Below, piece after piece: positions 4,298 to 39,254 of a stretch of DNA of 64,000 nucleotides. The DNA comes from Paracoccus methylovorus. GTDB taxonomy: Bacteria > Pseudomonadota > Alphaproteobacteria > Rhodobacterales > Rhodobacteraceae. Below the pieces are notes generated by a model. It searched no databases, was not told where the DNA came from, and worked only from the letters and a program-made list of their open reading frames with translations. Position 1 is the stretch's first letter. The number at the start of each line of letters is the position of its first letter. The stretch covers positions 1,021,501 through 1,085,500 of the forward strand of contig NZ_CP070371.1 of assembly GCF_016919705.1 (NCBI RefSeq), written 5' to 3'. The translations under genes were made by a program, and so were the position numbers.

Positions 4298-5968
4298 GTG
4301 AGCAGATTCGCCAAAAACGTCCGTTTGGGACTGATGATTCTATTCGCTTGGGCGCTGCCCCTGGCGGTCGCCGCAGCCCCGTTTGCGGCCTTCGTCATGG
4401 ACGCACGATCCGGGCAGGAAATCTATGCGCAGAACGCGGACACGCGGCTTCATCCGGCCTCGCTGACCAAGATGATGACGCTTTACATGGCCTTTACCGC
4501 AATCGAACGCGGGCAGGTCCGTCTGGACAGCAAGTTCCTGGTGTCCAGTCACGCGGCCTCGCAACCACCATCGCGGCTGGGGCTAAAGCCGGGCCAGCGG
4601 ATCGAGCTGCGTTATCTGATCCGCGCGGCAGCGGTGAAATCCGCCAATGACGCGGCAACGGTGATCGGCGAGGGGCTGGCCGGATCCGAGCCAAAATTCG
4701 CCCAGCAGATGACCCAGATGGCCAAGGCGCTGGGGATGCGCAACACCAACTTCCGCAACGCAAACGGGCTCACGGCCGAAGGGCATTATTCCACGGCCCG
4801 CGACATGAGCACTCTTGGCCGCCGCCTGTTTTATGACTTCCCCCAGTATTATTCGATCTTCTCGCGCCGTTCGGCTGATGCCGGAGTTGCCACGGTTTCC
4901 AGCACCAACAAGCGTTTTCTCGACAGCTATGAAGGCGCGGATGGTATCAAGACCGGCTATACCCGCGCGGCAGGCTTCAACCTGACCGCCTCGGCCAAGC
5001 GCGGTTCCAAGCGGATCATCGCCACCGTTCTGGGCGGCACATCGACAGCGCATCGCAATCAGGTGATGGCCCAACTGCTGGATACCGGCTTCGGGAAGGC
5101 CCCCACCCGTGTGCGAGAGGTAAAACCAGCGCCACCGCAACTGGTGGCCGAAAAGAAAGTGGTGCGCCGCACCGTGCAGGTTGCGCGCGCAGAGCCTGCC
5201 CAGACAACATCCAATATTCAGCTTTCCGCTTCGGACCGACCCGTGGCGCGCGCCTCCACCGTCGCAGTGGTGACACCTGCCGCGATTTCGGCCGCAGTCT
5301 CGCGGGCACAGGCCGCCGCGGTGCCGGTCCCCGTCAGAAAAGGAGATACGCTTAGCGCCAGTGCCCGCCCGGCGCGCAAACCGGGCACTGGACAGCTTGC
5401 CAAGGCAGCGGTGGACCCAGAGTTGCTGGCGCATGCGGCCCGCCCCGAGGCACGTCCGGAAGAGGGTGACGCAGCAGAGACAATCTCTCCGCCGTTGAAT
5501 GCCGCCCGCCCGGCGCCTGCACCACGTGGCGACCGGGCAGCCAGCCTGCCCGCCCCCGCCGGCTCGCCCTCGCTTTTCATCCAGTCAACCGAACCGCAGC
5601 AGGAAAGCATGGCCTTGCTCAACGCCCCTGCTCCGGCGCAACGGTCTGAGACCATCATCCTCGCCTCGCTTGAGCCGGAAGACGAAGCCGCTCCCGAGAA
5701 TGTCGAGATCGTCGCGCGGGGATCGGGTTCGGGCGGGAAAAGCTGGGGGGTTTCGCTGGGATTGTTTCGGTCCCAGCGCGAGGCCGAGCAGATCCTGCTG
5801 AAAACCGCCCTTCAGGAAAGCGGCGCGCTTGGCAGTGCCCTGAGCCGCGTTGCCAATACCAAGCGCGGTTTCGAGGCGAACTTCGTCGGCATGAACCAGG
5901 AAACCGCTGAACTTGCCTGCGGCCGGATTTCGGCACGGCAGCAGACCTGCCGCATCATCGGTCCCTGA
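4298..5968 (+). CDS. D-alanyl-D-alanine carboxypeptidase (peptidase S11) with SPOR domain
   Basis: 556 residues. A signal peptide (about 1-26, cleaved after VAAA) is followed by an S11 serine peptidase with SLTK (S55-K58), SAN (S115-N117) and KTG (218-220). A long Ala/Pro-rich linker (about 290-470) leads to a C-terminal SPOR domain (about 478-556) of the sort that binds denuded septal peptidoglycan. The likely role is trimming the terminal D-Ala of stem peptides in the periplasm at the division site. It is monocistronic, reading away from clpS. It also serves as the host reference for the phage-encoded S11 domains at 22.5-26.0 kb. Confidence 0.93.
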   Translation: MSRFAKNVRLGLMILFAWALPLAVAAAPFAAFVMDARSGQEIYAQNADTRLHPASLTKMMTLYMAFTAIERGQVRLDSKFLVSSHAASQPPSRLGLKPGQRIELRYLIRAAAVKSANDAATVIGEGLAGSEPKFAQQMTQMAKALGMRNTNFRNANGLTAEGHYSTARDMSTLGRRLFYDFPQYYSIFSRRSADAGVATVSSTNKRFLDSYEGADGIKTGYTRAAGFNLTASAKRGSKRIIATVLGGTSTAHRNQVMAQLLDTGFGKAPTRVREVKPAPPQLVAEKKVVRRTVQVARAEPAQTTSNIQLSASDRPVARASTVAVVTPAAISAAVSRAQAAAVPVPVRKGDTLSASARPARKPGTGQLAKAAVDPELLAHAARPEARPEEGDAAETISPPLNAARPAPAPRGDRAASLPAPAGSPSLFIQSTEPQQESMALLNAPAPAQRSETIILASLEPEDEAAPENVEIVARGSGSGGKSWGVSLGLFRSQREAEQILLKTALQESGALGSALSRVANTKRGFEANFVGMNQETAELACGRISARQQTCRIIGP

Positions 5969-21787: not shown

Positions 21788-21862
21788 TCCGGCGTAGCTC
21801 AGCGGTAGAGCAGTTGACTGTTAATCAATTGGTCGTAGGTTCGATCCCTACCGCCGGAGCCA
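21788..21862 (+). tRNA. tRNA-Asn (anticodon GTT)
   Basis: TCCGGCG at 21788-21794 pairs with CGCCGGA at 21852-21858; discriminator G then genomically encoded CCA. D-arm TAGCTCAGCGGTAGAGC, anticodon stem TTGA/TCAA around CTGTTAA with GTT at 21820-21822, T-loop GTTCGATCC. All arms fold without mismatch. It marks the boundary between core genome and the prophage remnant. Confidence 0.97.
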
Positions 21863-22458: not shown

Positions 22459-23646
22459 TCAGAGCGACCGGTGCTCGAGACGAGGCGACGGCACAAGCAC
22501 CGGCCAGTCATGACCCTTAACTACGGCATCGATTATGGTCCGGAGATCGCTATATCGCGCGGTGGCGCTCTCGGCGCGGGAGACAGCCACAACCATCGTG
22601 TTTCCCGTCGGCACGGTCACCAGCAGAGCGGCGTTGTAGCATTTGCGTCCAAGTGTGCCAGACTTCCCGCCAAGAACATCAGCATTGGAAACCATGGGCA
22701 CGGTATGCCGAATGGTAATGTGGCGAGCCTTTTTGCCCTGCACTTCGACGACGTAACGGCGTCGGCGCCATGCTTTCATGATCTCCGGCTGCGCTGCCGC
22801 TGCAATCATGAGCGCCGAGATATCCTTCATTGTCGTGACCTGGCCAGCTGCGCCAAGCCCGGACGGATTCTTGAACCGCGAGTCGCTCATCCCCAAATCT
22901 TCCGCCACGCGATTCATCTCTTTCACAAACCGATCAACTGGTGAGCCGCCACCTTCGAGCAGACCACCGAAGACTCTCGCTATGAGCATGGAAGCATTAT
23001 TGCTCGACGGCATCAGCATGTACTTCAGTGCGTCACCGAAGGATAGAATGTCGCCATCCACGATGCGGCTTCCAGAACCACCGACCTCATCTTCAGCTTC
23101 GATTTTCAAAAGCTCACTCGTGCTGACCCCAGCAGAAGCAGCTACGCGCAAGGCAACTATCGCGGTAAGAACCTTGGTCAGCGAAGCCGGCGCGACCGGT
23201 GCCAGCGGGCGCCGTTTGAACAGAACCGTGTTGGGAAATCCGGGCATCGCACCCAAATGCACGCAAATGGCTGCGTATGCTCCAATCTCGGGTGGCGTGT
23301 AGGGCGTTGGCAACAGCATATCGCTGGTCACAGCTCGAACGATATCGGCACCATAAAACGTGACGTGCGCATCAGCTGGTCTGGAGACGACCTGCATGGA
23401 GACCTTGGCCGTCAAGGCGGAACCCGGTGCCCCGAATATGGCCGTTCGAAAGCTCGGGACCGAACCAATGCAATCTGCGCCGATTTGCTGCGCCTCGATC
23501 AGCCTGGTTCCAGCCTGATCGGAATACCAGTTCACCATCAATCTGACTGTGCTGGCATTCGAGCCGGAGATCGCACCACCCCATGCCGATGCTGCATAGG
23601 ATCGCCCGCAGAGAACCTCGAATGGCTGCCCGAAAACCTCTTTCAT
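22459..23646 (-). CDS. Phage distal tail protein with C-terminal serine DD-peptidase (S11-like) domain
   Basis: 395 residues from ATG 23646 (GAGG 9 nt upstream; a TTG two codons earlier is the alternative). The N-terminal 110 or so residues are a beta-rich tail-type module. From about 115 onward it is a penicillin-binding-protein/S11 fold: SLTK (155-158), SSN (214-216), DSRFKNPSGLG as in DD-carboxypeptidases, and KSGT (328-331) in place of KTG. It ends HDWPVLVPSPRL, matching the DWPVLIPQL end of the upstream neighbour, so the two C-terminal domains are paralogous. No signal peptide, consistent with virion assembly, not secretion. Last gene of the tail module. Confidence 0.85.
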   Translation of the reverse strand: MKEVFGQPFEVLCGRSYAASAWGGAISGSNASTVRLMVNWYSDQAGTRLIEAQQIGADCIGSVPSFRTAIFGAPGSALTAKVSMQVVSRPADAHVTFYGADIVRAVTSDMLLPTPYTPPEIGAYAAICVHLGAMPGFPNTVLFKRRPLAPVAPASLTKVLTAIVALRVAASAGVSTSELLKIEAEDEVGGSGSRIVDGDILSFGDALKYMLMPSSNNASMLIARVFGGLLEGGGSPVDRFVKEMNRVAEDLGMSDSRFKNPSGLGAAGQVTTMKDISALMIAAAAQPEIMKAWRRRRYVVEVQGKKARHITIRHTVPMVSNADVLGGKSGTLGRKCYNAALLVTVPTGNTMVVAVSRAESATARYSDLRTIIDAVVKGHDWPVLVPSPRLEHRSL

Positions 23647-23724
23647 CGTCAATTACCTCGCAGACCCGATCATGCCTTAACTCAGTGGTGTAAATTTGCG
23701 CAATACTTCAATCGATTGCGTGCG

Positions 23725-25950
23725 CTACTGTCGCAGTTGCGGGATCAGGACGGGCCAATCGACGCCGTCGGCGGCGGCGGTAAATACCGCATCCGCATCG
23801 GCGTAGCGTATGGAATCGGACGAGGCTCCGAAGCCGACATAATAGTACCGGCTGCCTCCGGGCGCGATCACCTGGCACAGCATGCAGTTCTGCGCCCCCG
23901 TAGTGGTGCCGGTTTTGCCCCAAGTCACGCGCGGGTCACCGTATTCGATAAAATCAACCGAATGCCCGATGGAGGTGATCCGCGCATTTGGGCCGCCGAT
24001 TTCCAGATCCCACGTTGGCTGCGACCAGATGCGCTGGAATTCAGGGTGTTCCTGATCGGCGATCTCGCAGAGCAATGCCAGATCCTCGGCGGTCGTCCAG
24101 ACACCGCCCCCCGGCCCATCCAGACCAGAAGCGTTGCCCCATGTGCTGGCGATCATCCCAACCCGTGCACTCTCGGCGTTCATCGCTGCGATGAAGCGGC
24201 TGTAGGCATCGCCCGTTGCAGCCTCGTGGTCGAGGATCATTTGCCCGATGGTGCGCGCCCATACAGTCGTGGTCACATTGCTGGACGGCAACCCCATATT
24301 CGCCATCGCTCCATCGACATCCAGCGTATCGCCCGCCGTCAGGTTGTTACCCGATCCGCTTGTGGCGTCGCCCGGCTGGCATTCGAAAACCGTGTCCATT
24401 GCATCAAGCTGCTTGAGCCAGCGCAACCCGGTGTAGGCTGTCACAAGCTTGGTCATCGAGCCGGGCCGCAGGACCTCGATGCCCGCTTTCGCCCAGATCA
24501 CTGCGCCGACCGTGCCCGCTACCGGTTTGGACCGGATCATGGCGGCGACAGAGGAGATCTCCGGCTCAACCCAAGAGGACCCGTCATTTGCTGCTGCACT
24601 CGTAAAGCTTTCCCGCAGCCAGGCGCGGATCAGATCGAGCTCACCATCGGCGGCCGCCCGATGCAGGCACAGAACCCGCCCCATGGTCTGACCCGCGCCA
24701 ACGGCCGACGGATGGCGCAGCAGGGTCGTTGTCGTCTGTGCGATTGTGGTCGGGCGGCTAAAGGTGTCGATCAGCACGCCGTTGCGCCAGAACTGGCTTT
24801 GCTTTTCGCCGGATCGCAGGATCAGCACGAAGTCAGCCCACTGTCCGATTGGGTGTGGCGCGGCAGCGATCATGCCGCCAGATCCCGCACCATCGACAAC
24901 GCCGGCGATGAAGACCTGCATCCAGCCGTCAGCCACGACAGGGACAGCCCCATTGAAACGCACATTGGCGGATATCTGCGTCCGCCCCGTAACCCCTACC
25001 AGGTGCTGCCAGATCATGGCCTTGTAGCCGGATGTATCCGTCCGTTGGCTCCAGGCCAGAACACAATCGGCCGTTTCAGGGATTAGCGGAACTGGCCTGT
25101 TCAGCTGATCGGTGCTGTCGATCGAGCGCAGGGTGAGCCTGCCGCTGGAAAGTGCGGCCTTTGGAGCCGTGCCGCTGACGACAAGGCCTGTCCCGCCGAG
25201 CATGTCGGTCACGGCCGAGGGAACACTGGAAACTGACGCAATGCCAAGGGCCTGCCTGTCAGTGAAGTCGTAGATGGCGCCGCCAGAACCGTCGAGGAAC
25301 AGGGCCGCCGGGTCACCGGCCGCGCGTTGCAGGGCGCTGTCGGCGCGCATGCCCTGCGCGGCGGTCGCGACAGCATCCGAGGCGAGAATTTCCGCCCAGC
25401 CCTCCCACTCGCCAGTGGAAGTTCGGTAGCGCCGGAACTCCCGCGAAGGTGTTCCAGAGGCGGTTTGCTGCGTGCGGCCAACCTGCCACGCCCTGCCGCC
25501 GCTGCCCTCAATATGCGTCAGGGCGATTTGCAGGTTGGCTACCGGGGTGCCGGTGGCATTATAACCACGATAGGATCCGCTCTCCGTGATTACGTCGAAG
25601 TTGCCGATCCCAAGGGCTTCGCGATCCATCTTCGCGGCAAGCTGCGCGGTGGTCAGGGCGGTCTGCGGCAAGGCTGCAAATCGGGACCAGCTTCCACTGC
25701 CGGCAGCGCCTGTCTTGCGATACTGCCCGCGCCACGCCTCATTCGGATCACCCCAGACAGTGCCTCTGCTGCCCTCTGGCCAGTCGAGATCGGCATAGAG
25801 TTCGGCCCGGGTCTCATAATTCGGCCCGGGTGCCTCAGCCGCCACCCAGGCGGCGAACATCGCCGCCGGAATGCGGCGTGTATTGCCCTGCCAGTTGACG
25901 ATCACATCGTCGATCAGAGGAGCAACAGGGAGATTTGCGGTCGCAGTCAT
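23725..25950 (-). CDS. Phage tail fibre/distal tail protein: lectin-like middle and C-terminal serine DD-peptidase domain
   Basis: 741 residues. The N-terminal 200 residues look like a fibre attachment region (MTATANLPVAPLIDDVIVNWQG, then a collar-like repeat region). Residues about 215-450 resemble a LamG/concanavalin-type carbohydrate-binding fold. About 465-741 is an S11-like DD-peptidase with SMTK (498-501), SSN (556-558), WGNASGLDG and KTG (679-681). ATG 25950 overlaps the stop of the J-like gene (ATGA). No signal peptide. Expected to sit at the tail tip; binding of a glycan and acting on peptidoglycan are inferences. I know of no described tail fibre with this domain. Confidence 0.87.
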   Translation of the reverse strand: MTATANLPVAPLIDDVIVNWQGNTRRIPAAMFAAWVAAEAPGPNYETRAELYADLDWPEGSRGTVWGDPNEAWRGQYRKTGAAGSGSWSRFAALPQTALTTAQLAAKMDREALGIGNFDVITESGSYRGYNATGTPVANLQIALTHIEGSGGRAWQVGRTQQTASGTPSREFRRYRTSTGEWEGWAEILASDAVATAAQGMRADSALQRAAGDPAALFLDGSGGAIYDFTDRQALGIASVSSVPSAVTDMLGGTGLVVSGTAPKAALSSGRLTLRSIDSTDQLNRPVPLIPETADCVLAWSQRTDTSGYKAMIWQHLVGVTGRTQISANVRFNGAVPVVADGWMQVFIAGVVDGAGSGGMIAAAPHPIGQWADFVLILRSGEKQSQFWRNGVLIDTFSRPTTIAQTTTTLLRHPSAVGAGQTMGRVLCLHRAAADGELDLIRAWLRESFTSAAANDGSSWVEPEISSVAAMIRSKPVAGTVGAVIWAKAGIEVLRPGSMTKLVTAYTGLRWLKQLDAMDTVFECQPGDATSGSGNNLTAGDTLDVDGAMANMGLPSSNVTTTVWARTIGQMILDHEAATGDAYSRFIAAMNAESARVGMIASTWGNASGLDGPGGGVWTTAEDLALLCEIADQEHPEFQRIWSQPTWDLEIGGPNARITSIGHSVDFIEYGDPRVTWGKTGTTTGAQNCMLCQVIAPGGSRYYYVGFGASSDSIRYADADAVFTAAADGVDWPVLIPQLRQ

Positions 25951-28900
25951 CAGATCACCTCAAGGATGAAGGGACCTGCCACCGGGCCGGGCAATCCATC
26001 GGAGGTCTGCGGTTCGAGCCACAGGTAATGGGTGCCCTGCGCAAGACAGGCCGGGGTTTCGAGAAAGACAGAGATGGCTTCGAGGCTGCCGTCGAAGGAT
26101 GCGCCGGCGGCGAGCGTGAAGGCGTTGTTGCCGGGGACGGCCTGCAGGCGGGTACTGCGAGGACCATTTCCGGCAACGCTGGGGCCGGAAACCTCCGTGC
26201 TGCCAGTCAGGCGCGGTGTCACGCCGCCAGCGGTGCGGCCAGACACAGTATAACCGATGCGATACCAGCGTCCGGCCTGCATGCTGATGGGCTGGGACAG
26301 ATCGCCCGATTCGCCGGGTGCATGCGTGGCGATGCCACCCGAGACCGACCAGCCCGACCCGGCGGTTTCGACCCAGGCATTGTTCTTGATGAGATTTTGC
26401 CGCGTGGTGTCGCCGACGGTGATGGAATGGGACTGCGACGGCGAAACCGCGACCGGCTTGCCGGACTTATCGGTCTCGCGGTCCAGTGTCGCGGACATTG
26501 ACCGATAGAGCTGCACCTGCGCGGTGCCGGCATCCGGGCCGGTGGCAAAAAGGATCAGCCCGCCGCCGAGCAGTGCGGTGACACTGACGCTGTCGGCATC
26601 GAGCGCATCGGGAGGGTTGAACTCCGCGCCCACCGTATAGGTAACGGTCGGGCCGTATGGTCCCGGCACATCGGCCGGTGAGACGGCGCGGGCGCGCATC
26701 TCGATCACCTGCCCCTGGATATATCCGGCAATCGTGCCGCCGCCGTTGGCGGCCGGGACGGAAAGCACGGTCCAGCTGGCCGCGCCCTGCAGGCGATGTT
26801 CAACCTGATACCGGGAAGTGCGGATGGCGCCGGAACCCGGCTCGAGCAGGTACTCAACGCGCCAGACGGTCAGGTTGATGCGCGATGTGGCGATCTGCGT
26901 CCAGCGCGGGGCTGAAGGCTCGATCAGGTCGGCTTCTATCACGGTCCCGACGCGGCTGGACCAGTCCGGGACCCTGGTGGCATCGGTGAGCGTGTCGATC
27001 TCGGGCGCGGCATCGACACAGCGCAGGATCGTGCACATGTCCTCGGTCGCCTCGGTCTGGGTGACGATGACGCGGGCGCTCTCCTGGCCGGCGATGCCGA
27101 AAAGGATCAGGTCGCCGGCCTCCGGCATCGGCCCGTCGCCGGAAAGTGTCAGGATATTCGTGGTGCCAGCTTCGGTGACGACATTCCTGACATCCGACGA
27201 GCCGATGGTGTCGGCTGCCGAAAAGCGGCGGAAGCGGACGCCGTAGGACTTGCCCGCAACCATGGTGACATCGTCATCGAGCAGCACCCGTGGGCCTGTC
27301 ACGTCCTTGACCCGCGCCGCCTTCTGCACCGTCGAGAGCACGTCATGGCTGATGACGATGGTGTCGCCGCGCGTGGCGACCCGGGCGGCGCCGTCCTGGG
27401 TGACCTCGTAGACGTCCGGGCGCAGCATGGCCTCGTACATGCGCCGGGTGGCCTCGCGGAAGATGATGTCGGGGTTGGTGATGCCCGGCAGGTCCAGCAT
27501 CTCGGTCAGGTCGATAGAGCCCTCATGCCCCGGCCATGGGATGACGCGCTGGTTTTCCTTGAAATCGTCGGTCTCGTCCTGGAAACGGACGATGAAGCCG
27601 TGCGGGCGTTCGGCATAGACGCGGCGGCAGGAGAAGTTCCAGCTGTTGCGCGGGCTGACATGGTCGACGATCAGCTCCGAGGGCCGGTCGATGACCACGC
27701 CCCATTTCAGGCCGTCATGGCGCGGGGTGGCACGGCCAGCGGCGGCGATTTCGGTCAGCACGTCGCGCAGGCTGGTGCCGGTCTGGTCGAGGACGCGGTT
27801 GTAGGCCAGCCCCTTCAGCCGGCAGAAATCGTGCCAGTCCTGAAGCTGCTGCAGGTCGATCCCGCCGTTCGGCACCGCCTTGGGGTTCGAGGGGTGCTGC
27901 AGCACCAGCCGATAGAGCGAGGCCGGGTTTGATGTGGCGCGCGTCACCCATGTCCCGGTCTCATGGTTCCAGTCCGGGCAGACCCGGCTGGCCAGCGCAG
28001 TAAAGTTGTCGAGCGCCCCGGACAGCTGATGCGTGGCCTTGACGCGCACCGAGACCAGCGTCAGCGGCCGGTCATAGGCGATGGGATATTCGGGACGGAT
28101 GGTCTGCAGCGCCGCCCAGGCGGTGCGTTGCTGGACCTTGCTGTCCTCGGTCTCGTCGGTGAGCATGGTCAGCCGGATGTCCCAGCGTCCGCGCGCCGGC
28201 AGCGCCCATGTGTGCTGGCGGTAGAACGCCTCCTGCCGTTTGGCCGAGATATTGAGGGTGGTGACCGTCTGCCAGTCCCCGCTGCCGGCGCGGCACTGCT
28301 CGACGCGGATCCGCACCGTGACCGTATGCCGGTTGCCGTCATCGGTGAACTGGATCAGCCCGGCCGGAAAGGCGAGGATGATCGAGGCGCTTTTGGCATC
28401 GCTGCCGGTGGTGCGGGTGATCGGGGTTTCCCGGGCCGGCTGACCGTTGATTACCTCACCCCGGTCATCACGCGGCAGCGGCCGCACCAGATCGACGCCC
28501 ACCGTCTCCTCGACGATCTGCTGCGGATAGAGGCTGCAGGGCAGATCATCGGCCAGTCCCCGGCGGATCTCGGTCTGCACTTCGTCGAATTCCGACAGCG
28601 GCGTGTCGCCGATGCGGAAATCGCTCAGGTTGAGCCGGCCCTCGCCGAACAGGAAGATGCAGCGGAGATACTGCCAGTCGCCGACGATCTCGGTGTAGGG
28701 TCGGGCCGCGAAGGGCGGCGCATAGCGCAGCGAGCCCAGCACGAAGGGCACCGCCCCGTCGGGATCGAGCCGGTTGCGCCAGCCGCTGATCGAATAGGTG
28801 TTGCGGACCTTCTCGGTGTCGGGCTTCACCGGTGGCACCAGGGCGTTGATCAGCAGGTTGCCGATCAGGTTGACACCCATACCGATCACGCCCATTGCCG

Positions 28901-29285
28901 CGCCGATGGCAGCGGTACTGGCGCCCCAGCCCAAGGCACCGGCAAGGGCCGGGGCAAAATAATAGGCGAGAGCGACAGCGGCGATGGCAACAACAACGGA
29001 AAGCACAGCCCGCAACGCACCCTTACCGGGCACCAGCCGGATCACCACCCGCGCACCCGGTTTCGGGCGCACCGCATGCCAGAGTGCGGGCGCGATGATG
29101 CTGGAACCAGCCGGGCTGACCAGTGCAACCCGGATGCGCTTCAGATCCTCCGCCGTCGCCCCCGGCAGCGCCTGACGCACGATCTGCGCCACCGTCAGCC
29201 CCTCGGACAGCACGATCTCGACGCGGCCGGCGCCGGGGTCGAACTGCGAGGCAGCAAGAACGGGTATCATACCCTTTTGCGTCAT
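25950..29285 (-). CDS. Phage tail tip / host-specificity protein, lambda J-like
   Basis: 1111 residues. A ubiquitin-like start (VEIVLSEGLTVAQIVRQALPG) is followed by a hydrophobic stretch (90-150) and the J-type core (YSISGWRNRLDPDGAVPFVLGSLR, then GEGRLNLSDFRIGDTPLSEFDE). Fibronectin-III-like repeats occur beyond about 790, including VEYLLEPGSGAI and LWLEPQTSDG near the end. J proteins close the tail and bind the host receptor. It is coupled to NlpC (ATGA at 29285-29282) and to the fibre gene. The frame is intact with no internal stops. Confidence 0.92.
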   Translation of the reverse strand: MTQKGMIPVLAASQFDPGAGRVEIVLSEGLTVAQIVRQALPGATAEDLKRIRVALVSPAGSSIIAPALWHAVRPKPGARVVIRLVPGKGALRAVLSVVVAIAAVALAYYFAPALAGALGWGASTAAIGAAMGVIGMGVNLIGNLLINALVPPVKPDTEKVRNTYSISGWRNRLDPDGAVPFVLGSLRYAPPFAARPYTEIVGDWQYLRCIFLFGEGRLNLSDFRIGDTPLSEFDEVQTEIRRGLADDLPCSLYPQQIVEETVGVDLVRPLPRDDRGEVINGQPARETPITRTTGSDAKSASIILAFPAGLIQFTDDGNRHTVTVRIRVEQCRAGSGDWQTVTTLNISAKRQEAFYRQHTWALPARGRWDIRLTMLTDETEDSKVQQRTAWAALQTIRPEYPIAYDRPLTLVSVRVKATHQLSGALDNFTALASRVCPDWNHETGTWVTRATSNPASLYRLVLQHPSNPKAVPNGGIDLQQLQDWHDFCRLKGLAYNRVLDQTGTSLRDVLTEIAAAGRATPRHDGLKWGVVIDRPSELIVDHVSPRNSWNFSCRRVYAERPHGFIVRFQDETDDFKENQRVIPWPGHEGSIDLTEMLDLPGITNPDIIFREATRRMYEAMLRPDVYEVTQDGAARVATRGDTIVISHDVLSTVQKAARVKDVTGPRVLLDDDVTMVAGKSYGVRFRRFSAADTIGSSDVRNVVTEAGTTNILTLSGDGPMPEAGDLILFGIAGQESARVIVTQTEATEDMCTILRCVDAAPEIDTLTDATRVPDWSSRVGTVIEADLIEPSAPRWTQIATSRINLTVWRVEYLLEPGSGAIRTSRYQVEHRLQGAASWTVLSVPAANGGGTIAGYIQGQVIEMRARAVSPADVPGPYGPTVTYTVGAEFNPPDALDADSVSVTALLGGGLILFATGPDAGTAQVQLYRSMSATLDRETDKSGKPVAVSPSQSHSITVGDTTRQNLIKNNAWVETAGSGWSVSGGIATHAPGESGDLSQPISMQAGRWYRIGYTVSGRTAGGVTPRLTGSTEVSGPSVAGNGPRSTRLQAVPGNNAFTLAAGASFDGSLEAISVFLETPACLAQGTHYLWLEPQTSDGLPGPVAGPFILEVI

Positions 29286-29728
29286 CGCCGGACCTCCGAG
29301 ACGATCTGAACCGGGTGTTCAACCGCCCGTGAAACGTGCCTGTAATGGCCCTCGAAACGGTGCATCCACGGGCCGGCGGCGTAGCTTTCCACCTTGGCGC
29401 AATCGTCCTCGCGCATGTGGATCATCAGCCCGTGGCGGATGGTGATGCCGACATGGGTGTTGAGCCGCCCGCGCCGGAACAGCGCGATGTCAAACGCCAC
29501 GGCCGGCCCGGCAACCGGGACCCAGAGCGGCGAAACCCGGTCGCGGTCGATCAGCGCCGCGACCTCGCCCAATTCCTCGGGCGAGGCGTAATCGCCAAGG
29601 TAGTCCAGCAGCGAGATGCCCAGTTCCTCGCGATAGATGATGCAGGCCAGCCCCCAGCAGTCGCAGCCCTCGCGCGACCTCCCGAAATCCTCGTAGGGGG
29701 TGCCGACGTAACGATCCGACCAGCTCAT
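29282..29728 (-). CDS. Phage tail NlpC/P60 cysteine peptidase
   Basis: 148 residues. GCDCWGLACIIYRE holds the catalytic cysteine (C24 in DCWGL), and H92 in NTHVGI is the second member of the triad, with H105 in MIHMRE a candidate third. Such proteins cleave peptidoglycan cross-links or stem peptides during DNA entry and sit just before the tip protein in siphophages. Coupled to both neighbours by ATGA overlaps. Confidence 0.92.
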   Translation of the reverse strand: MSWSDRYVGTPYEDFGRSREGCDCWGLACIIYREELGISLLDYLGDYASPEELGEVAALIDRDRVSPLWVPVAGPAVAFDIALFRRGRLNTHVGITIRHGLMIHMREDDCAKVESYAAGPWMHRFEGHYRHVSRAVEHPVQIVSEVRR

Positions 29729-30252
29729 AGGTGCAGCCCCGGAAACCGGTGCCGCGTCAGGCGGCCGGACGGGAACGGCTCCAGCTCGATCTCGTCGCGC
29801 GACAGCGACAGGACGATTTCGCCGGCGGTGATCTCGGCCGAGACGATCTGCAGGCCGGTGGCTTCCATCTCGACCTTGTTCGGGGACGAGGCCAGAACCA
29901 CGGCCATTGAGACCGTGGCCGGATCGGTGAAGGAGCGCACCAGCTCGACCATCCCGGCGTCGAGGTTTTCCAGCACCAGCGTGGCCTGTGCCGGCGCGTC
30001 CTCGGCTTCACCCGGCAGCACCACCGAGGCCACGACCCAGAGCCACGGATCCTCTGCATAGCGCGCGCCCTTCCAGGTCGAGAGCGTGCCGTAGATCTCG
30101 GGGTCCACGGAGATCCTGACGGCGTTATCGGTGGAAAGCCGGATCGGTGCCTCCAGCTCGGGATGCTCGATCAGGATCAGCGCCACCTCGATCTCGCCGG
30201 AATATTCTTCCTCATGCGCAAGGCGGGCATTCATCGACAAACGGCGGCTCAT
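29725..30252 (-). CDS. Phage tail protein, DUF1833-like
   Basis: 175 residues, starting MSRRLSMNARLAHEEEYSGEIEVALILIEHPEL; beta-rich with LVLENLDAGMVELVRSF and ending RHRFPGLHL. The composition and its position immediately before NlpC/P60 and J match the DUF1833/DUF2163-type minor tail proteins of siphophages and gene transfer agents. ATG 30252 overlaps the stop of the preceding frame. Confidence 0.8.
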   Translation of the reverse strand: MSRRLSMNARLAHEEEYSGEIEVALILIEHPELEAPIRLSTDNAVRISVDPEIYGTLSTWKGARYAEDPWLWVVASVVLPGEAEDAPAQATLVLENLDAGMVELVRSFTDPATVSMAVVLASSPNKVEMEATGLQIVSAEITAGEIVLSLSRDEIELEPFPSGRLTRHRFPGLHL

Positions 30253-30593
30253 GGCAGCACCCAGATTTGAAAGGATTTCAGAAATTTGACCTGATCGACG
30301 ACGGTCTCGGTCGGCAGCTGATCGCCCCAGGCGCAGAGCCAGCGCTCGCTGAGCAGCAGCGGCTCTTTGGTCTGGGCATTGACCAGCAGACCGACGCCGG
30401 CGGCATTGGTCAGCGCATCGAGCAGATCCAGCTCCATGACCTTGGCCACGCTGAAGGCGACGGCATGTTCCTCGGGTTCGACGTCCTCAAAACTGAAGGC
30501 CGGGCGCAGGCCCTTGTTGCGCAGGAACCGGCTCGCCTCTGGCGGCGGGCCGGGGTTGAAACTGTAGCCGGGACGGTCACGCGGATCGCTCAC
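30249..30593 (-). pseudogene. Chimeric frame: Mu gp30/F head-protein N-terminus joined to a tail-gene C-terminus
   Basis: 114 residues from GTG 30593 (GGGGGG upstream). The first half, RPGYSFNPGPPPEASRFLR then FSFEDVEPEEHAVAFSVAK, is the N-terminus of Mu-like F minor head proteins, which normally run to 400 or more residues. After LDLLDALTN it switches to an unrelated end, ERWLCAWGDQLPTE then VDQVKFLKSFQIWVLP, which I take to be the end of a tail gene that preceded DUF1833. An internal deletion that happened to stay in frame explains it. The downstream ATGA coupling is preserved, so this frame may now serve to start translation of the tail module. Confidence 0.72.
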
Positions 30594-30734
30594 CGCACAC
30601 CCCCCGGAAATCCGGCGCAGGGGCGGGACAGGCCGGCCAAGGGTGCCCATGGCTGCAAATGGCCGTGACCCCGTTTAAAAATGCCGGAAAACCGTTTAAA
30701 CGGCGAAGCTTGCCCGACATGCCCGGTGGCAGGT

Positions 30735-30947
30735 TCAGCCATCGCGCTGATCGCCCAAGACGCGGCCCTTGAACATGCCCTTCACCAGCGTCTGGACCGC
30801 CAGACCGGTGGGCATATGCGCCAGCGCCTCGGGCAGGCGCTGCAGCACATCCTCATAGCTGGAAGCGCCATCCATGACGGTGGCGATCGCCGCCTGCAAT
30901 TCGTCACCGAGTTCCTGCCAGTCCTCCAGCATGTCGCGCGGCAACCG
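30735..30947 (-). pseudogene. C-terminal fragment of a DUF935 (Mu gp29-like) portal protein
   Basis: Reads RDMLEDWQELGDELQAAI, ASSYEDVLQRLPEAL, VQTLVKGMFKGRVLGDQ to a TGA stop. This is the helical end typical of DUF935 portal proteins, which are normally about 500 residues. The similarity begins abruptly near 30947, where a terminase-like frame ends, indicating a deletion junction. The interval between here and 30593 contains only a short frame (ATG 30739, about 50 codons) of doubtful status. Confidence 0.7.
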
Positions 30948-33006: not shown

Positions 33007-35394
33007 ATGGTCTCCGAGAATGATGTGTGGCGGCGCTATGCGTCCATGATTCCGGGGGTGCTTGCTGCACGACCCACCTTCCGGCCTGAGCACGGGAACG
33101 GCGAGGTCGTCGCGCAACCCGACTATTACACTGAACTGGCGCGCAGCGTTTCTGGTCTGGACCAGCTTCTGGATAGCCTACGGCTTTTTGACGGGCCAGA
33201 CCTTGCGGACCCGGAACTTGCTGGCATCTCTACTCATCTGCTGTGCGAACTGATGGCCTTGGGCGATCCCGTAGACCGGTTGGTGTCGAACTTCTCGGCT
33301 GCCTACTATCTGGAGCAGCACAGCGACATTGCGCGGGCGCAGATGAACCCGCTCGACCACTATCTGCGGTGGGGATACCTTGAAGGGTGGCGGCAAACCC
33401 TGTCCCCCCTTCGCCGCCGGCTGGCCCTTGGCGGCGGGCGTAAGCCGAATGTGGCGTCGGCGGTGGCCATACTGGCCGCAGATCCCGATGATGCCGACAC
33501 ATCCGAAGTGCTGGTTGCGCTCGCCGGGGCGCTGGACCGGGACGGGTTCAACGTGATCCTGTTGACCGAACGCAGCGGGGGTACGCGACCACAGTTGAAT
33601 CGCCTGCTGACCGCGACCCTGCCCCCCGAAGGGGCGAGTTGGATCCTTCGCTACCTTCTGAACCTCGAACTGGCGGCCATCGTCTGTCTCGACACGGACA
33701 CGGGGGAGTTTGCCGGTGTCCTGCGCCATGCGGATGTGGCGGTGCTAGATGTCCAGTCCGGCTTTCCGGATACGCGGCCGCTGTCCGAGCGGCATTTTGC
33801 GCAGGTGCCGCTGTTTGCCTGCTGCCATTTCGCCAGTGCCGATATCGCGGCCGCTTGGGAAAACCTATTCCGGGATCACGGCGTGGAACCCGGCGCCAGC
33901 AAGGTCTTTGAATACTTCGCCCTGCCACGCTGGTCCGAGACCCGCGAGGGCACGGGAGACTTGCAGGCAATGCTGGAGCGGCAGTTCGGGTCGGGGCAGC
34001 GCACACGCGCACTGGTTCTCTCCAGCGGCCGCACCGACACCGATGCGGGGTTTGGCCTGTTCCGTGCTTTGGCCGCCATTGCCGCGGGCAGGAAACTCCC
34101 GGTTGATTTCCTGTGGCTTGCCGATCATGGCGGTGCGTCAATTCCGCCCCTTACCTGGCCGGGCGTCTCCGGGCTCGCCGTCTGGCACCGGACCGCCTCG
34201 CTGCCGGGGCTCATCGAGGTTGCCGATTGTTATGTTGATCTCGGCCCTGCGGAACGCCCATCAAAGGAAGCGATTCTAGCCGTTGGCATGGGAGCCACCG
34301 CCATCTGCTTTGAGGGCAGCCGGACTCTGTCGGCGCGGGACGCGCATCCCCGCCTGGCCGGACAGTTCATCGCAGTCCCGGACGGTGATCTGAATCAGGT
34401 TCTGGCCGCAATCCCACGTCGGGCCGAGAGGGGGCGACGCGTGCGATCCCTCGGGGCCAGCGGTCTCGAAGGGTTCTGCGAAACCATCATGGACAGCGTG
34501 ACTGCAGCAATCAAAATGCAGCAAGCCCGTGACCTCGATACGCCGGGAAGGCTGCTGCAAGGCCCGCGACAGGCGGGGACTCCGACGGCCTGGTTGAGCA
34601 TGGGCGAGCTGAAGTCGCGGATCCGGACGTCAGCCCATCCTGCGCACACCGGGATCGAGATCCACGAAGCCCTCGCCAATGTCGACCTGACCAGCGCACC
34701 CTTCAGCATCCATTACCACGTCCACGACCCGGGGAACGACATCTGCGAGGACTTCCAAAGCCTAAGCACGGCCTTTCGTTTGGCCCGTGAGACAGTCTTC
34801 ACTGTCACCAGCCGCACAGGCGCCGAGCTCTTGGCGGCCTTGGCGGAAAAAAGCGAGGGTGTCTTTCGTATCGAGCAGGTTCCCAATCTGGGCCGGGATA
34901 TCCTGCCGTTCCTGCAGGTCCCGCGCGACGCCTTTCTGGCCGAGCCAGACATGTGGTGGTGCCATGTTCATCAGAAAAAATCACGCCACCTGATCAATGG
35001 CGACGATTGGCGCCAACGCCTGTTTCGGTCGCTGCTGGGTGGGGGAGCCGAAGGCACAGCGGGAGTCCGACTGGACAGGGCCGATCTGGGGCTCGTTGCG
35101 CCTGTCGACCGGTTCGGACGCCGTTGGAGACGTTCGCACCGGTTGCGGGACCGGATCGCCAGCCCACTAAACCAGCCGCTGCCCGATGAGCCGCTCATGT
35201 TCCCGGTGGGCAATATGTTCTTCTGCCGGGCTCGCCTCGCCACCGCGATGCTGGACCTGTTCGGCGCGCATTATCCCTGGCCCGAGGAGCCCATCCCCAT
35301 CGACGGGACCGAGTATCATCTGATCGAACGGCTTTGGCCGCTGGTTGCACAGCGTTCGGGGCTGCGGTCGGGGTTCTTTGGAAATCTGTCCTGA
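33007..35394 (+). CDS. RgpF (rhamnan synthesis F)-domain glycan biosynthesis protein
   Basis: 795 residues. Near 95-135 it carries the glycosyltransferase-associated repeat YYLEQHSDIARAQMNPLDHY then LRWGYLEGW. The middle (about 150-520) is GT-like without a motif I can name. The C-terminal 230 residues match the RgpF family: FSIHYHVHD, VPNLGRDILPFL, HVHQKKS and FPVGNMFFCRA. Proteins of this kind transfer or polymerise rhamnose-type sugars of surface polysaccharide. No membrane anchor. Start ATG 33007. First gene of the glycan group. Confidence 0.82.
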   Translation: MVSENDVWRRYASMIPGVLAARPTFRPEHGNGEVVAQPDYYTELARSVSGLDQLLDSLRLFDGPDLADPELAGISTHLLCELMALGDPVDRLVSNFSAAYYLEQHSDIARAQMNPLDHYLRWGYLEGWRQTLSPLRRRLALGGGRKPNVASAVAILAADPDDADTSEVLVALAGALDRDGFNVILLTERSGGTRPQLNRLLTATLPPEGASWILRYLLNLELAAIVCLDTDTGEFAGVLRHADVAVLDVQSGFPDTRPLSERHFAQVPLFACCHFASADIAAAWENLFRDHGVEPGASKVFEYFALPRWSETREGTGDLQAMLERQFGSGQRTRALVLSSGRTDTDAGFGLFRALAAIAAGRKLPVDFLWLADHGGASIPPLTWPGVSGLAVWHRTASLPGLIEVADCYVDLGPAERPSKEAILAVGMGATAICFEGSRTLSARDAHPRLAGQFIAVPDGDLNQVLAAIPRRAERGRRVRSLGASGLEGFCETIMDSVTAAIKMQQARDLDTPGRLLQGPRQAGTPTAWLSMGELKSRIRTSAHPAHTGIEIHEALANVDLTSAPFSIHYHVHDPGNDICEDFQSLSTAFRLARETVFTVTSRTGAELLAALAEKSEGVFRIEQVPNLGRDILPFLQVPRDAFLAEPDMWWCHVHQKKSRHLINGDDWRQRLFRSLLGGGAEGTAGVRLDRADLGLVAPVDRFGRRWRRSHRLRDRIASPLNQPLPDEPLMFPVGNMFFCRARLATAMLDLFGAHYPWPEEPIPIDGTEYHLIERLWPLVAQRSGLRSGFFGNLS

Positions 35395-36800: not shown

Positions 36801-37492
36801 AATCCACAACCGAATTTAATAAGATAACCGTTTTTGGCGCACGGGGCCACAGCCTGATGATCCTGCGCGGACTGCAGGAATATTGGCGGGGTCGGGTCAA
36901 GGTCCGCGCCCTGATCGACGATGTCGATAATGGCCATACCCATCCCGGCTTGGGAATCCCGGTGATTTCATCTGATCAACGGTTAAGCGACTATCCCGAT
37001 CTGCCGGTTCTGGTGACGCCGGGCAGCGGCAGTCTGCGCGCCCAGGTCATTGCCCGGCTGGCTGGCGAAGGCGCAACACTCGCAACCGCAATCTGCCCCG
37101 ATCAGGTACATGTCGATCCCGAAGTGACTTACGGATTTGGCAGCATTGTCACAGCCCATACCCGTCTCGGGCCAGCGGTTCGGATCGGCGATGGGGCTCA
37201 GGTTCTTGCCACCATGATCGCGCATGATGTCGAAATTGGTGCGTTCAGCAATCTGAATGTACATTCCAGCGTTCTGGGCCATGTAATCATTGGGCGCGAG
37301 GTGAATATCGCCCCCTATGCGGTGATAGGCAATGGCACGCGCGAACGTCCGCTGAGGATCGGTGACGGAGCGGTGATCGGTGTCGGCGCGGTCGTCGTTC
37401 GCGACGTGCCCGAAGGGGCGCGCATGGTTGGTAATCCGGCAATGAGCGTCGAACGTTGGAAAGCGCTCAACCGTCTGATTGACGGGACATGA
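36797..37492 (+). CDS. NeuD/PglD-like sugar O/N-acyltransferase
   Basis: 231 residues. N-terminal nucleotide-sugar-binding fold (TVFGARGHSLMILRGL) and a C-terminal left-handed beta-helix with hexapeptide repeats (IGAFSNLNVHSSVLGHVIIG, IGDGAVIGVGAVVVRDVPEG). Transfers an acyl group, usually acetyl, to an amino sugar. Start ATG 36797 overlaps the aminotransferase stop. Its 3' end overlaps that of the convergent glycosyltransferase by 26 bp. Confidence 0.9.
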   Translation: MKSTTEFNKITVFGARGHSLMILRGLQEYWRGRVKVRALIDDVDNGHTHPGLGIPVISSDQRLSDYPDLPVLVTPGSGSLRAQVIARLAGEGATLATAICPDQVHVDPEVTYGFGSIVTAHTRLGPAVRIGDGAQVLATMIAHDVEIGAFSNLNVHSSVLGHVIIGREVNIAPYAVIGNGTRERPLRIGDGAVIGVGAVVVRDVPEGARMVGNPAMSVERWKALNRLIDGT

Positions 37493-39032
37493 AACGCTCC
37501 ACCAAGGCATCGACATAGGGCGCGAAGGCGGTTTCGGCTTTGATATGGTGCCGTAGCGCGCGCCGACCTGCATTGCTCGCCGATGTTGCCATGCGTAGTG
37601 CCGCCGAGACAAAAGCCTCGATATCCCCGGACGCCACAAAATCACCGAACCCTTCGGTCATGCCAATGATACCGATATCCGCCACGTAACCGACAAATGG
37701 CGTGCCGACAGCCGCAGCATGGATTGCGGTCGTCGGGCCCGGATCCTGACGCGAGGTCAGCAGATAGACATCCGCCGCCCGATACCAGGCCAGGGAGTCC
37801 GCCACGAAACCCGGTAAGGTCAGGTCCAGCCCCTTGGCCAAAGCTTGATCCGCCAACTCGCGCGCCCACCCATCCAGCGCGCCCAACCAGATGAAACGCG
37901 CATCTGCATGAGCTTCGCGCAGCCGCGCGGCAGCTTCCAAAAACAGATCGAACCCTTTGCGCCGGTCTGCATGACCTGCGCCGATGAACACCGGCCCGTC
38001 TTGTTGCCGTCGCCACTTCTGCGTGCGACGGAAATCCCGCAACGACGTTTCTGGTAGGGTGACGCCAGGGCGCAGCACCTCCAGCGCACCAAAGCCATCT
38101 GCGAGTGCCGCGGCCATACGCGGCATGGAGGGGATCAGCCGCGCTCCGTTGGACTGTGCGGCCTTGAGATGAGGCACGAACCCTTGTTCGTGTATGTATT
38201 CCGCCATTTCATGGATCAGGACGAGGCAGGGATGCCCCGCGCCGGCAGCAACCGCCGCCATATCCGCTGCGGCGGCAGTGTTCACGATGACCGGGGTTTT
38301 TGCGGCAAGCCCTTCGGCCAACCCCTGCCGGTCCCAGCCTTCCGCGATCATCAGGGTGGGGCCCAGCCTGCGAAACCTGTCGATCAGCGGCCCGCCCCGG
38401 CCCAAGACGAAAACTGGCTGCCAGCCCTGCTCCACGAAAGCCGCTGCAAGGTCGAGGGTCAGGATCGGGACTCCGGCCTGTTGTGCATCATGAACGCAAA
38501 ACAAGACCGGCTGCGACAGACCTTTGGTTGCTGCCGCCATCGCAGTTCGAGACTGCTGCCTGTCACGAGGGTTAGGGGTGGGCAGGTATCCAAGACTTTG
38601 GCCGGTGGTTACAAAATGCCGGAACGGATGGCGCTGTTCCAGTGCGAGATAGCATCGCTGGTAGAAACCGGCGTCGAACCCGGCCGAGGGGCTGCGTAAC
38701 TCTGCATCCCCATGGCTAACGAAATGCAGCGCGGCCCGTGACCCAAGTTCGACCAGATCGGGATACCGGGCCAGGTAGAAGTCTGGGTCGATCAGAGGAT
38801 GAGGCTGGCGGGACTCGCCCCTATGCATTCGGGCCATAAAGTCGCCGACTGCAGTGGTCGCACCCTGTGCGCGCCAATCGGGATACCGGCCCTTGTAGAA
38901 CTGGGTCGAGAAATAGGGGCTCGGGTCCAGCCCCATGGCGTCACCCACCGCGACGAAATGCGCGGAGGTCGCATCATCCTTCAGGTCATAAACGGTCCGG
39001 TAGAAATCTGCATCGAACAGGCTGTCGTTCAT
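37467..39032 (-). CDS. Glycosyltransferase, GT4-like, with N-terminal sugar-transferase-associated repeats
   Basis: 521 residues from ATG 39032. The first 160 residues hold three copies of the motif found in the RgpF gene: FDADFYRTVYDL, IDPDFYLARYPDLVELG and FDAGFYQRCY. The remainder is GT-B: LFCVHDAQQAGVPILTLDLA at the start, then FIGAGHADRRKGFDLFLEAA, RFIWLGALDGW and QDPGPTTAIHAAAVGTPFVGY as the donor-binding C-domain. Likely adds a sugar to the surface glycan. Convergent with the acyltransferase. Confidence 0.87.
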   Translation of the reverse strand: MNDSLFDADFYRTVYDLKDDATSAHFVAVGDAMGLDPSPYFSTQFYKGRYPDWRAQGATTAVGDFMARMHRGESRQPHPLIDPDFYLARYPDLVELGSRAALHFVSHGDAELRSPSAGFDAGFYQRCYLALEQRHPFRHFVTTGQSLGYLPTPNPRDRQQSRTAMAAATKGLSQPVLFCVHDAQQAGVPILTLDLAAAFVEQGWQPVFVLGRGGPLIDRFRRLGPTLMIAEGWDRQGLAEGLAAKTPVIVNTAAAADMAAVAAGAGHPCLVLIHEMAEYIHEQGFVPHLKAAQSNGARLIPSMPRMAAALADGFGALEVLRPGVTLPETSLRDFRRTQKWRRQQDGPVFIGAGHADRRKGFDLFLEAAARLREAHADARFIWLGALDGWARELADQALAKGLDLTLPGFVADSLAWYRAADVYLLTSRQDPGPTTAIHAAAVGTPFVGYVADIGIIGMTEGFGDFVASGDIEAFVSAALRMATSASNAGRRALRHHIKAETAFAPYVDALVERFMSRQSDG

Positions 39033-39254
39033 TGGATTTTCCTGCCAGCAACGCTGCCCCGAATATCTTTTCTGGCGACGGGCAGTGCAATCCAGATTAT
39101 GTAGAGACCCCAAACCCGCATGCGCTTGGCATGCACAATGCTGGACGGAGACGTTCCTGAGAAAGCGGAAACGGTGTCGGCCACCTCCGGGTAAGTTGGC
39201 CGACCGGCCGCACTCACATCTCGGCATCGTTCAGCAAACAAACGATCAGTGCCG

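What the first reader, a model, noticed from the sequence alone, without database searches (positions are those of the whole stretch)
22459..25950. Two adjacent phage tail proteins carry penicillin-binding-protein-like DD-peptidase domains
Both distal tail genes end in a domain with the complete serine DD-peptidase triad of motifs: SMTK-498/SSN-556/KTG-679 in the 741-residue protein and SLTK-155/SSN-214/KSG-328 in the 395-residue one. Both also keep the NASGLDG/NPSGLG block of S11 carboxypeptidases and end in DWPVL(I/V)P. Neither has a signal peptide and both follow a J-like tip protein, so they look like virion components. Phage tails commonly carry NlpC/P60, lysozyme or M23 domains; a transpeptidase/carboxypeptidase fold on a receptor-binding protein is, as far as I know, not described. 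It might act on stem peptides at the cell surface, or use the PBP fold to bind D-Ala-D-Ala as a receptor.
Basis: partly seen in the sequence, partly recalled or inferred. Interest (0 to 1): 0.82.

Follow-up and report, generated by a model that had tools for sequence, protein, structure and literature searches.

The report
Cell-wall enzyme domains on phage tail fibres
Two adjacent tail-fibre genes in a broken prophage end in an enzyme domain of the penicillin-binding-protein kind; relatives on the tails of other phages form a lineage of their own, and some of them carry the two halves of the domain in swapped order.

Summary

They are tail genes: they follow a lambda-J-like tip protein at the end of an RC1-like tail module in a deleted prophage. 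A's N-terminal anchor recurs in 7 of 124 other genomes of the genus with other C-termini, two of them beta-helix/pectate-lyase-like, so S11 sits in a swappable tail-fibre enzyme slot.

It is not unique. 70 S11 domains from such proteins, plus one phage-like sequence, separate from 220 other S11 domains (support 0.993). A subclade of 41 is circularly permuted: the KTG half precedes the SxxK half.

Conserved catalytic residues and dN/dS of 0.05-0.16 favour a working DD-peptidase over a binding-only domain. Substrate and presence in virions are untested. Single phage genes already bore the label DD-carboxypeptidase; ten literature searches showed no description of a tail family.

The parts
23725..25950 (-). 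A: 741-aa tail fibre / receptor-binding protein with C-terminal S11 domain
   Evidence: ORF; PF00768 7.1e-12 and PHROG 29482 2.4e-18
25639..25950 (-). A residues 1-104: tail anchor shared with phage RC1 and 7 other genomes of the genus
24616..25614 (-). A residues about 113-445: pyocin-knob-like and LamG/ConA-like stretches (named by eye; no Pfam or PDB support)
23746..24564 (-). A residues 463-735: S11 DD-peptidase domain, Ser498/Lys501, SSN556-558, KTG679-681, Arg715
22459..23652 (-). B: 397-aa protein (395 from the ATG at 23646); N-terminal part jelly-roll-like by eye, then S11 domain; possibly truncated
22489..23292 (-). B residues 121-388: S11 domain, Ser157/Lys160, SSN216-218, KSG330-332, Arg366 (397 numbering)
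25950..29285 (-). J-like tail tip protein, 1111 aa
   Evidence: PHROG 31 7.4e-122; NCBIfam TipJ above cut-off
29282..29728 (-). NlpC/P60 tail peptidase, 148 aa
   Evidence: PF00877 8.3e-9, PHROG 329
29725..30252 (-). minor tail protein, 175 aa
   Evidence: PHROG 396 2.1e-20
30249..30650 (-). tail-module ORF, 133 aa; C-terminal part similar to the RC1 region before the minor tail gene
   Evidence: PHROG 220 1.2e-8; tblastn
30738..30947 (-). fragment of a portal gene: prophage deletion scar
   Evidence: PHROG 113 portal 4.5e-5
21788..21862 (+). tRNA-Asn beside the remnant; no duplicated att repeat of 12 or more bases found in the window

Best explanation
A is a tail fibre / receptor-binding protein of an RC1-like phage. 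Its N-terminal anchor plugs it into the tail beside the J tip, middle domains reach out and bind, and the C-terminal serine DD-peptidase domain works at the tip. B is a second, shorter protein of the same slot, possibly truncated. The domain most likely acylates on Ser498 (A) or Ser157 (B) and cuts bonds next to D-amino acids in peptidoglycan stem peptides or cross-links as the fibre engages the envelope, so that a cell-wall peptidase sits on the receptor-binding protein itself. Shown: motifs, fold (A), gene position, modular anchor, purifying selection in relatives, separate clade. Inferred: presence in the virion, catalysis, substrate, role in entry.
Against: No proteomic or enzymatic evidence. 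NCBIfam matches lie far below the curated cut-offs (58.6 of 294 bits), so no specificity can be named; A's best is VanY-D (34.8 of 625). Peptidoglycan lies under the outer membrane, while the same slot elsewhere holds polysaccharide-type enzymes, which fits an outer-surface substrate as well. Seven of 71 tail domains depart from the triad. The NlpC/P60 protein of the module already provides a wall peptidase. The window's prophage is defective, so its own copies need not function now; dN/dS was measured on relatives only.
Confidence: 0.5

Rival explanations
1. The domain is an outer-surface serine hydrolase, not a peptidoglycan peptidase: it removes D-alanyl or other acyl groups from surface glycopolymers, as the SxxK enzyme DltE removes D-Ala from lipoteichoic acid, and so trims the receptor like a depolymerase.
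For: The same anchor carries beta-helix/pectate-lyase-like domains in two other genomes, and a GH5 protein follows it in a third. DltE, annotated as a DD-carboxypeptidase, is a D-Ala-LTA esterase (PMC10241514, abstract and passages).
Against: The tail domains keep SxN and K[ST]G and the carboxylate-type arginine in most cases, whereas DltE has altered second and third motifs and a Tyr in place of the arginine.
Confidence: 0.22
2. Binding only: the fold is used to recognise D-Ala-D-Ala or another wall motif as receptor, with no need for catalysis.
For: Fibre-tip position; seven of 71 domains lack a canonical second or third motif.
Against: Ser and Lys of SxxK are kept in 71 of 71 domains and the full triad in 64 of 71, which binding alone would not require.
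Confidence: 0.1
3. Not a virion component: a lysogeny or lysis gene that happens to lie behind the tail genes and acts on the host wall from inside.
For: Some viral contigs carry small S11 proteins with signal-like N-termini (L170-L195); some permuted relatives begin like lipoproteins (P0084, P0087); the UHP46 gene is not beside obvious tail genes.
Against: A has a fibre anchor and no signal peptide by eye; relatives are fused to tail-collar (PF12571), BppU_N and collagen domains; the tail clade excludes both other S11 genes of this genome and the three secreted viral S11 tested.
Confidence: 0.1

Closest known systems
Peptidase family S11 (PF00768: PBP5/PBP6, PBP7, Streptomyces K15 DD-transpeptidase)
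   Same: Fold, SxxK/SxN/K[ST]G, carboxylate-type Arg
   Different: On a tail fibre, no signal peptide by eye, separate clade, mostly Thr after K[ST]G (25 of 29 linear tail proteins against 9 of 134 others), one branch circularly permuted
Erythrobacter phage R6L gp77 and ZS04_37
   Same: S11 domain in a tail-module protein; BFVD's best match to A's model is a 755-aa protein, the length of gp77
   Different: S11 in the middle of the protein; anchor not matched to A's; only annotated in the passages read, not studied
Rhodobacter phage RC1 fibre RHWG_00002
   Same: Same anchor after the same J-type protein
   Different: 477 aa, tail-fibre PHROG matches in place of an S11 match
Tail-associated wall hydrolases (NlpC/P60, lysozyme, M23)
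   Same: Wall-type enzyme in a tail module
   Different: Serine acyl-enzyme fold, placed at the receptor-binding fibre; activity untested
DltE, D-Ala-lipoteichoic-acid esterase (PMC10241514)
   Same: SxxK beta-lactamase-type fold, annotated as DD-carboxypeptidase
   Different: R61-like, altered motifs 2 and 3, lost arginine, cell-bound

Membership tests
Peptidase S11 (PF00768) | Profile match above Pfam's gathering score | tested here: met
   45.7 and 71.5 bits, cut-off 27.6
Peptidase S11 (PF00768) | SxxK, SxN and K[ST]G motifs in order | tested here: met
Peptidase S11 (PF00768) | DD-peptidase fold | tested here: met
Peptidase S11 (PF00768) | DD-peptidase activity and penicillin acylation | not testable with these tools
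   needs protein
PBP7-type DD-endopeptidase (NF008668) | Curated score cut-off | tested here: not met
   B 58.6 of 294 bits; A not listed
VanY-D (NF000471) | Curated score cut-off | tested here: not met
   B 49.6, A 34.8 of 625 bits
Tail fibre / receptor-binding protein | Virion-anchor domain and gene behind the tail tip gene | tested here: met
   A. B has the position but no recognised anchor
Tail fibre / receptor-binding protein | Presence in the virion, receptor binding | not testable with these tools
   no proteomics in the R6L passages read
Virion-associated lysin | Wall-cleaving activity in the virion | not testable with these tools
   inferred only
DltE-like D-Ala esterase | Altered motifs 2 and 3 and loss of the carboxylate-binding Arg | tested here: not met
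   A and B keep all three motifs and the Arg
Circularly permuted S11 (relatives, not A or B) | KTG half precedes SxxK half in one compact domain | tested here: met

The most novel reading that the evidence does not exclude
Tailed phages of Gram-negative and Gram-positive bacteria share a virus-specific lineage of receptor-binding-protein DD-peptidases, separate from bacterial S11 enzymes and including a naturally circularly permuted penicillin-binding-protein fold. Such phages would process the cell wall or receptor with a penicillin-type acyl-enzyme during adsorption, and might be inhibited by beta-lactams.
Probability: 0.5. Interest if true: 0.87.

Novelty: new variant of a known kind. Interest (0 to 1): 0.76.

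Why it matters
It would add an acyl-enzyme DD-peptidase, the target class of penicillin, to the catalogue of tail-fibre enzymes, with a simple pharmacological test (bocillin or beta-lactam binding by virions). The permuted branch is a natural experiment on the PBP fold: the halves are swapped and the active site kept. It also shows that 'D-Ala-D-Ala carboxypeptidase' labels in phage genomes cover at least two kinds of gene, tail-fibre modules and small secreted-looking proteins.

Tried and rejected
Host carboxypeptidase with a missed signal peptide: rejected by anchor, position and tree. 'Phage' records that look like host DNA, Acinetobacter MD-2021a (housekeeping neighbours) and E. coli 813R9 (host genes beyond an integrase), were not counted as tail evidence. 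Five unannotated faecal 'Bacteriophage sp.' records and Enterococcus Efs 1-1-1 were fetched (L143, L146-L150; linear S11) but not counted, for want of verified context; most of the 42 and 15 phage records hit were not opened. A viral scan with P0068 found nothing; one with P0073 gave two loci matching only residues 176-242, outside the S11 domain. Searches of 394 family and 385 class genomes (E <= 1e-14 and 1e-16) found one A-like domain outside the window's genome, in G166: rare in this clade. iqtree timed out; its unfinished tree showed the same split, without support values. In some searches the row meant for the genome's second other S11 gene was a wrong-strand ORF and dropped out; one search repeats the tree with both genes. 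A's middle domains: no convincing PDB relative; pyocin-knob and LamG are my names by eye. Permuted C-half hits end before the arginine in 26 of 42 cases and show R in the other 16; in alignment A4 that column is R in 90% or more of 31 rows. Ten literature searches listed no paper on S11 domains in tail fibres or on a permuted PBP in phages; the library lacks most subscription journals. PMC5114367 (passages) concerns a metallo-beta-lactamase-domain protein, unrelated. Permutation was not checked with a non-sequential structural aligner.

Limits of the tree: the tail set was gathered by similarity to A, B and L034, and P0002-P0004 were put in it for closeness to B, so part of the clade is seeded by the search; 'other' is a default label, not checked row by row. 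Several rows are near-duplicates (P0065/A, P0076/L034, probably P0086/L160, L163-L169, P0071-P0073). The intruder P0016 resembles the viral protein of L033 by eye.

Full report

Surroundings. Upstream of A lie a J-like tip protein, NlpC/P60, a minor tail protein and one more tail-module ORF, in the order of Rhodobacter phage RC1: J 57%, NlpC/P60 66%, minor tail 60% and A's anchor 46% identical. Beyond 30650 there is decayed sequence, one piece matching a portal protein (E 4.5e-5), then a CobW gene. Ten larger ORFs further right gave no tail, head or replication PHROG. On the other side are a tRNA-Asn and genes such as acyl carrier protein, a short-chain dehydrogenase and an acyltransferase. 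This is the tail end of a deleted prophage. The J sequence has one match in the genome, itself. The genome has four S11 matches: A, B and two others.

The slot is modular. Of 125 genomes of the genus searched with A, 8 match at E <= 1e-12: its own and seven that share only the N-terminal 100-240 residues. J-like sequence precedes the anchor in six of those seven: full length in L131, L132, L134 and L135, in pieces in L136, only the C-terminal end in L130; L133 cannot be examined because its contig begins inside the anchor. Six of the seven proteins are long (753-947 aa; L133 cut by its contig end) and one is short (148 aa, L130). None of the six long ones matches S11. Two have right-handed beta-helix/pectate-lyase-like domains, two match tail-fibre PHROG 4201, and the gene after the anchor protein in L133 has a GH5 domain. 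A's S11 domain therefore takes a position used elsewhere by polysaccharide-type enzymes.

The domain recurs on tails. Homology searches gave P0071-P0073 with a phage tail-collar domain (PF12571) plus S11, P0070 with two S11 domains, and P0066 and P0068, both named Paracoccus denitrificans and on a contig of the same length. Annotated phages: R6L gp77 and ZS04_37 in tail modules; Mwe-JY26 behind tape measure, NlpC/P60 and two hypothetical proteins; Tedan among hypothetical proteins. Viral contigs: L163-L169 carry S11 at the C-terminus of 734-1136-residue proteins. In L165 the gene lies between tape measure and NlpC/P60 plus a J-like protein; in L168 it is the third gene after a baseplate wedge gene has ended (two genes between). 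G166 has S11 inside a 1726-residue protein with tail-fibre-like repeats by eye.

Clade. A FastTree of half-domain columns from 291 proteins places 29 linear tail and 41 permuted domains, plus P0016, apart from the other 220, among them both other S11 genes of the window's genome (SH-like 0.993); the permuted set is one clade (0.908). With 290 proteins the same split had 0.993; on the SxxK half alone 0.899 with two intruders, on the KTG half alone 0.904 with one; the permuted clade had 0.914, and 0.998 on the KTG half, while on the SxxK half the best permuted clade held 37 of 41. A first tree of 204 proteins gave 0.961. The residue after K[ST]G is T in 25 of 29 linear tail, 30 of 41 permuted and 9 of 134 other proteins. 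The search seeding and near-duplicate rows named under Tried and rejected weaken this.

Enzyme or binder. Ser and Lys of SxxK are kept in 71 of 71 domains (29 linear proteins with 30 domains, 41 permuted) and the full triad in 64 of 71; the exceptions are Tedan, Microcystis, G166, the first P0070 domain, P0106, L161 and L162. K15's residue 248 (an R248L mutant is in the PDB as 1esi) aligns with B Arg366 by phmmer and with A Arg715 by the domain alignment; 28 of 30 linear domains keep the Arg. That such an Arg binds the substrate carboxylate is stated for R61's Arg285 in PMC10241514 (passages) and recalled for S11. dN/dS over the S11 part is 0.051-0.155 in the 21 pairs of L163-L169, 0.066 for L152/L153 and 0.057 for R6L/ZS04. 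These favour a working DD-peptidase. Whether it clips peptidoglycan on entry or trims a surface polymer cannot be decided from sequence; the outer membrane makes the second a serious rival.

Literature. PMC5463345 (passages) lists R6L gp77 as DD-carboxypeptidase in a table; 'mass spectrometry', 'proteom' and 'SDS-PAGE' do not occur in its main text. PMC13227992 (passages) calls a phage DD-carboxypeptidase a wall-degrading enzyme; the passages do not place it on the tail. PMC5219037 (passages) reports that a phage enzyme predicted as DD-carboxypeptidase (VanY, M15) was an L-Ala-D-Glu endopeptidase, a warning about names. PMC11267873 (one passage) concerns a host gene. PMC12185513: 'carboxypeptidase' does not occur. 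PMC10241514 (abstract and passages) describes DltE. PMC5114367 (passages) concerns a metallo-beta-lactamase-domain protein. Other papers: search listings only.

Verdict. What it cuts, and whether it is in virions, is open.

Noticed in passing
L034:6333-8252, L038:6018-8246, L029:8927-10246, P0005, P0076-P0106, L152-L162: Circularly permuted S11 domains, most at the C-terminus of proteins of which several lie in tail modules of Gram-positive-type phages.
   Followed up: yes
L170-L195 (viral contigs): Small S11-like proteins (about 230-300 aa) with signal-like N-termini (by eye), many matching only the KTG half of my HMMs; a second kind of phage S11 gene.
   Followed up: partly
L160:7503-9299; P0085, P0086, P0089: Permuted S11 with about 200 residues between the two halves; in L160 a sub-threshold CBM_4_9 match lies there.
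   Followed up: no
P0084, P0087: Permuted S11 proteins whose N-termini look like lipoprotein signals (by eye), so perhaps cell-surface rather than virion proteins.
   Followed up: no
P0070: A 1202-aa protein with two S11 domains, the first with KGG in place of KTG; a one-gene parallel to the A-B pair.
   Followed up: partly
window 4298-5968 (+): One of the genome's two other S11 genes lies in the same window about 18 kb from B; it groups with bacterial S11, not with A and B.
   Followed up: yes
window 33007-35394 (+), 37467-39227 (-): A rhamnan-synthesis RgpF-like protein and a glycosyltransferase lie near the prophage remnant, so surface-polysaccharide genes are close by.
   Followed up: no
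L144, L145: Two records filed as phages (Acinetobacter MD-2021a, E. coli 813R9) hold host chromosomal genes around their S11 hit.
   Followed up: partly
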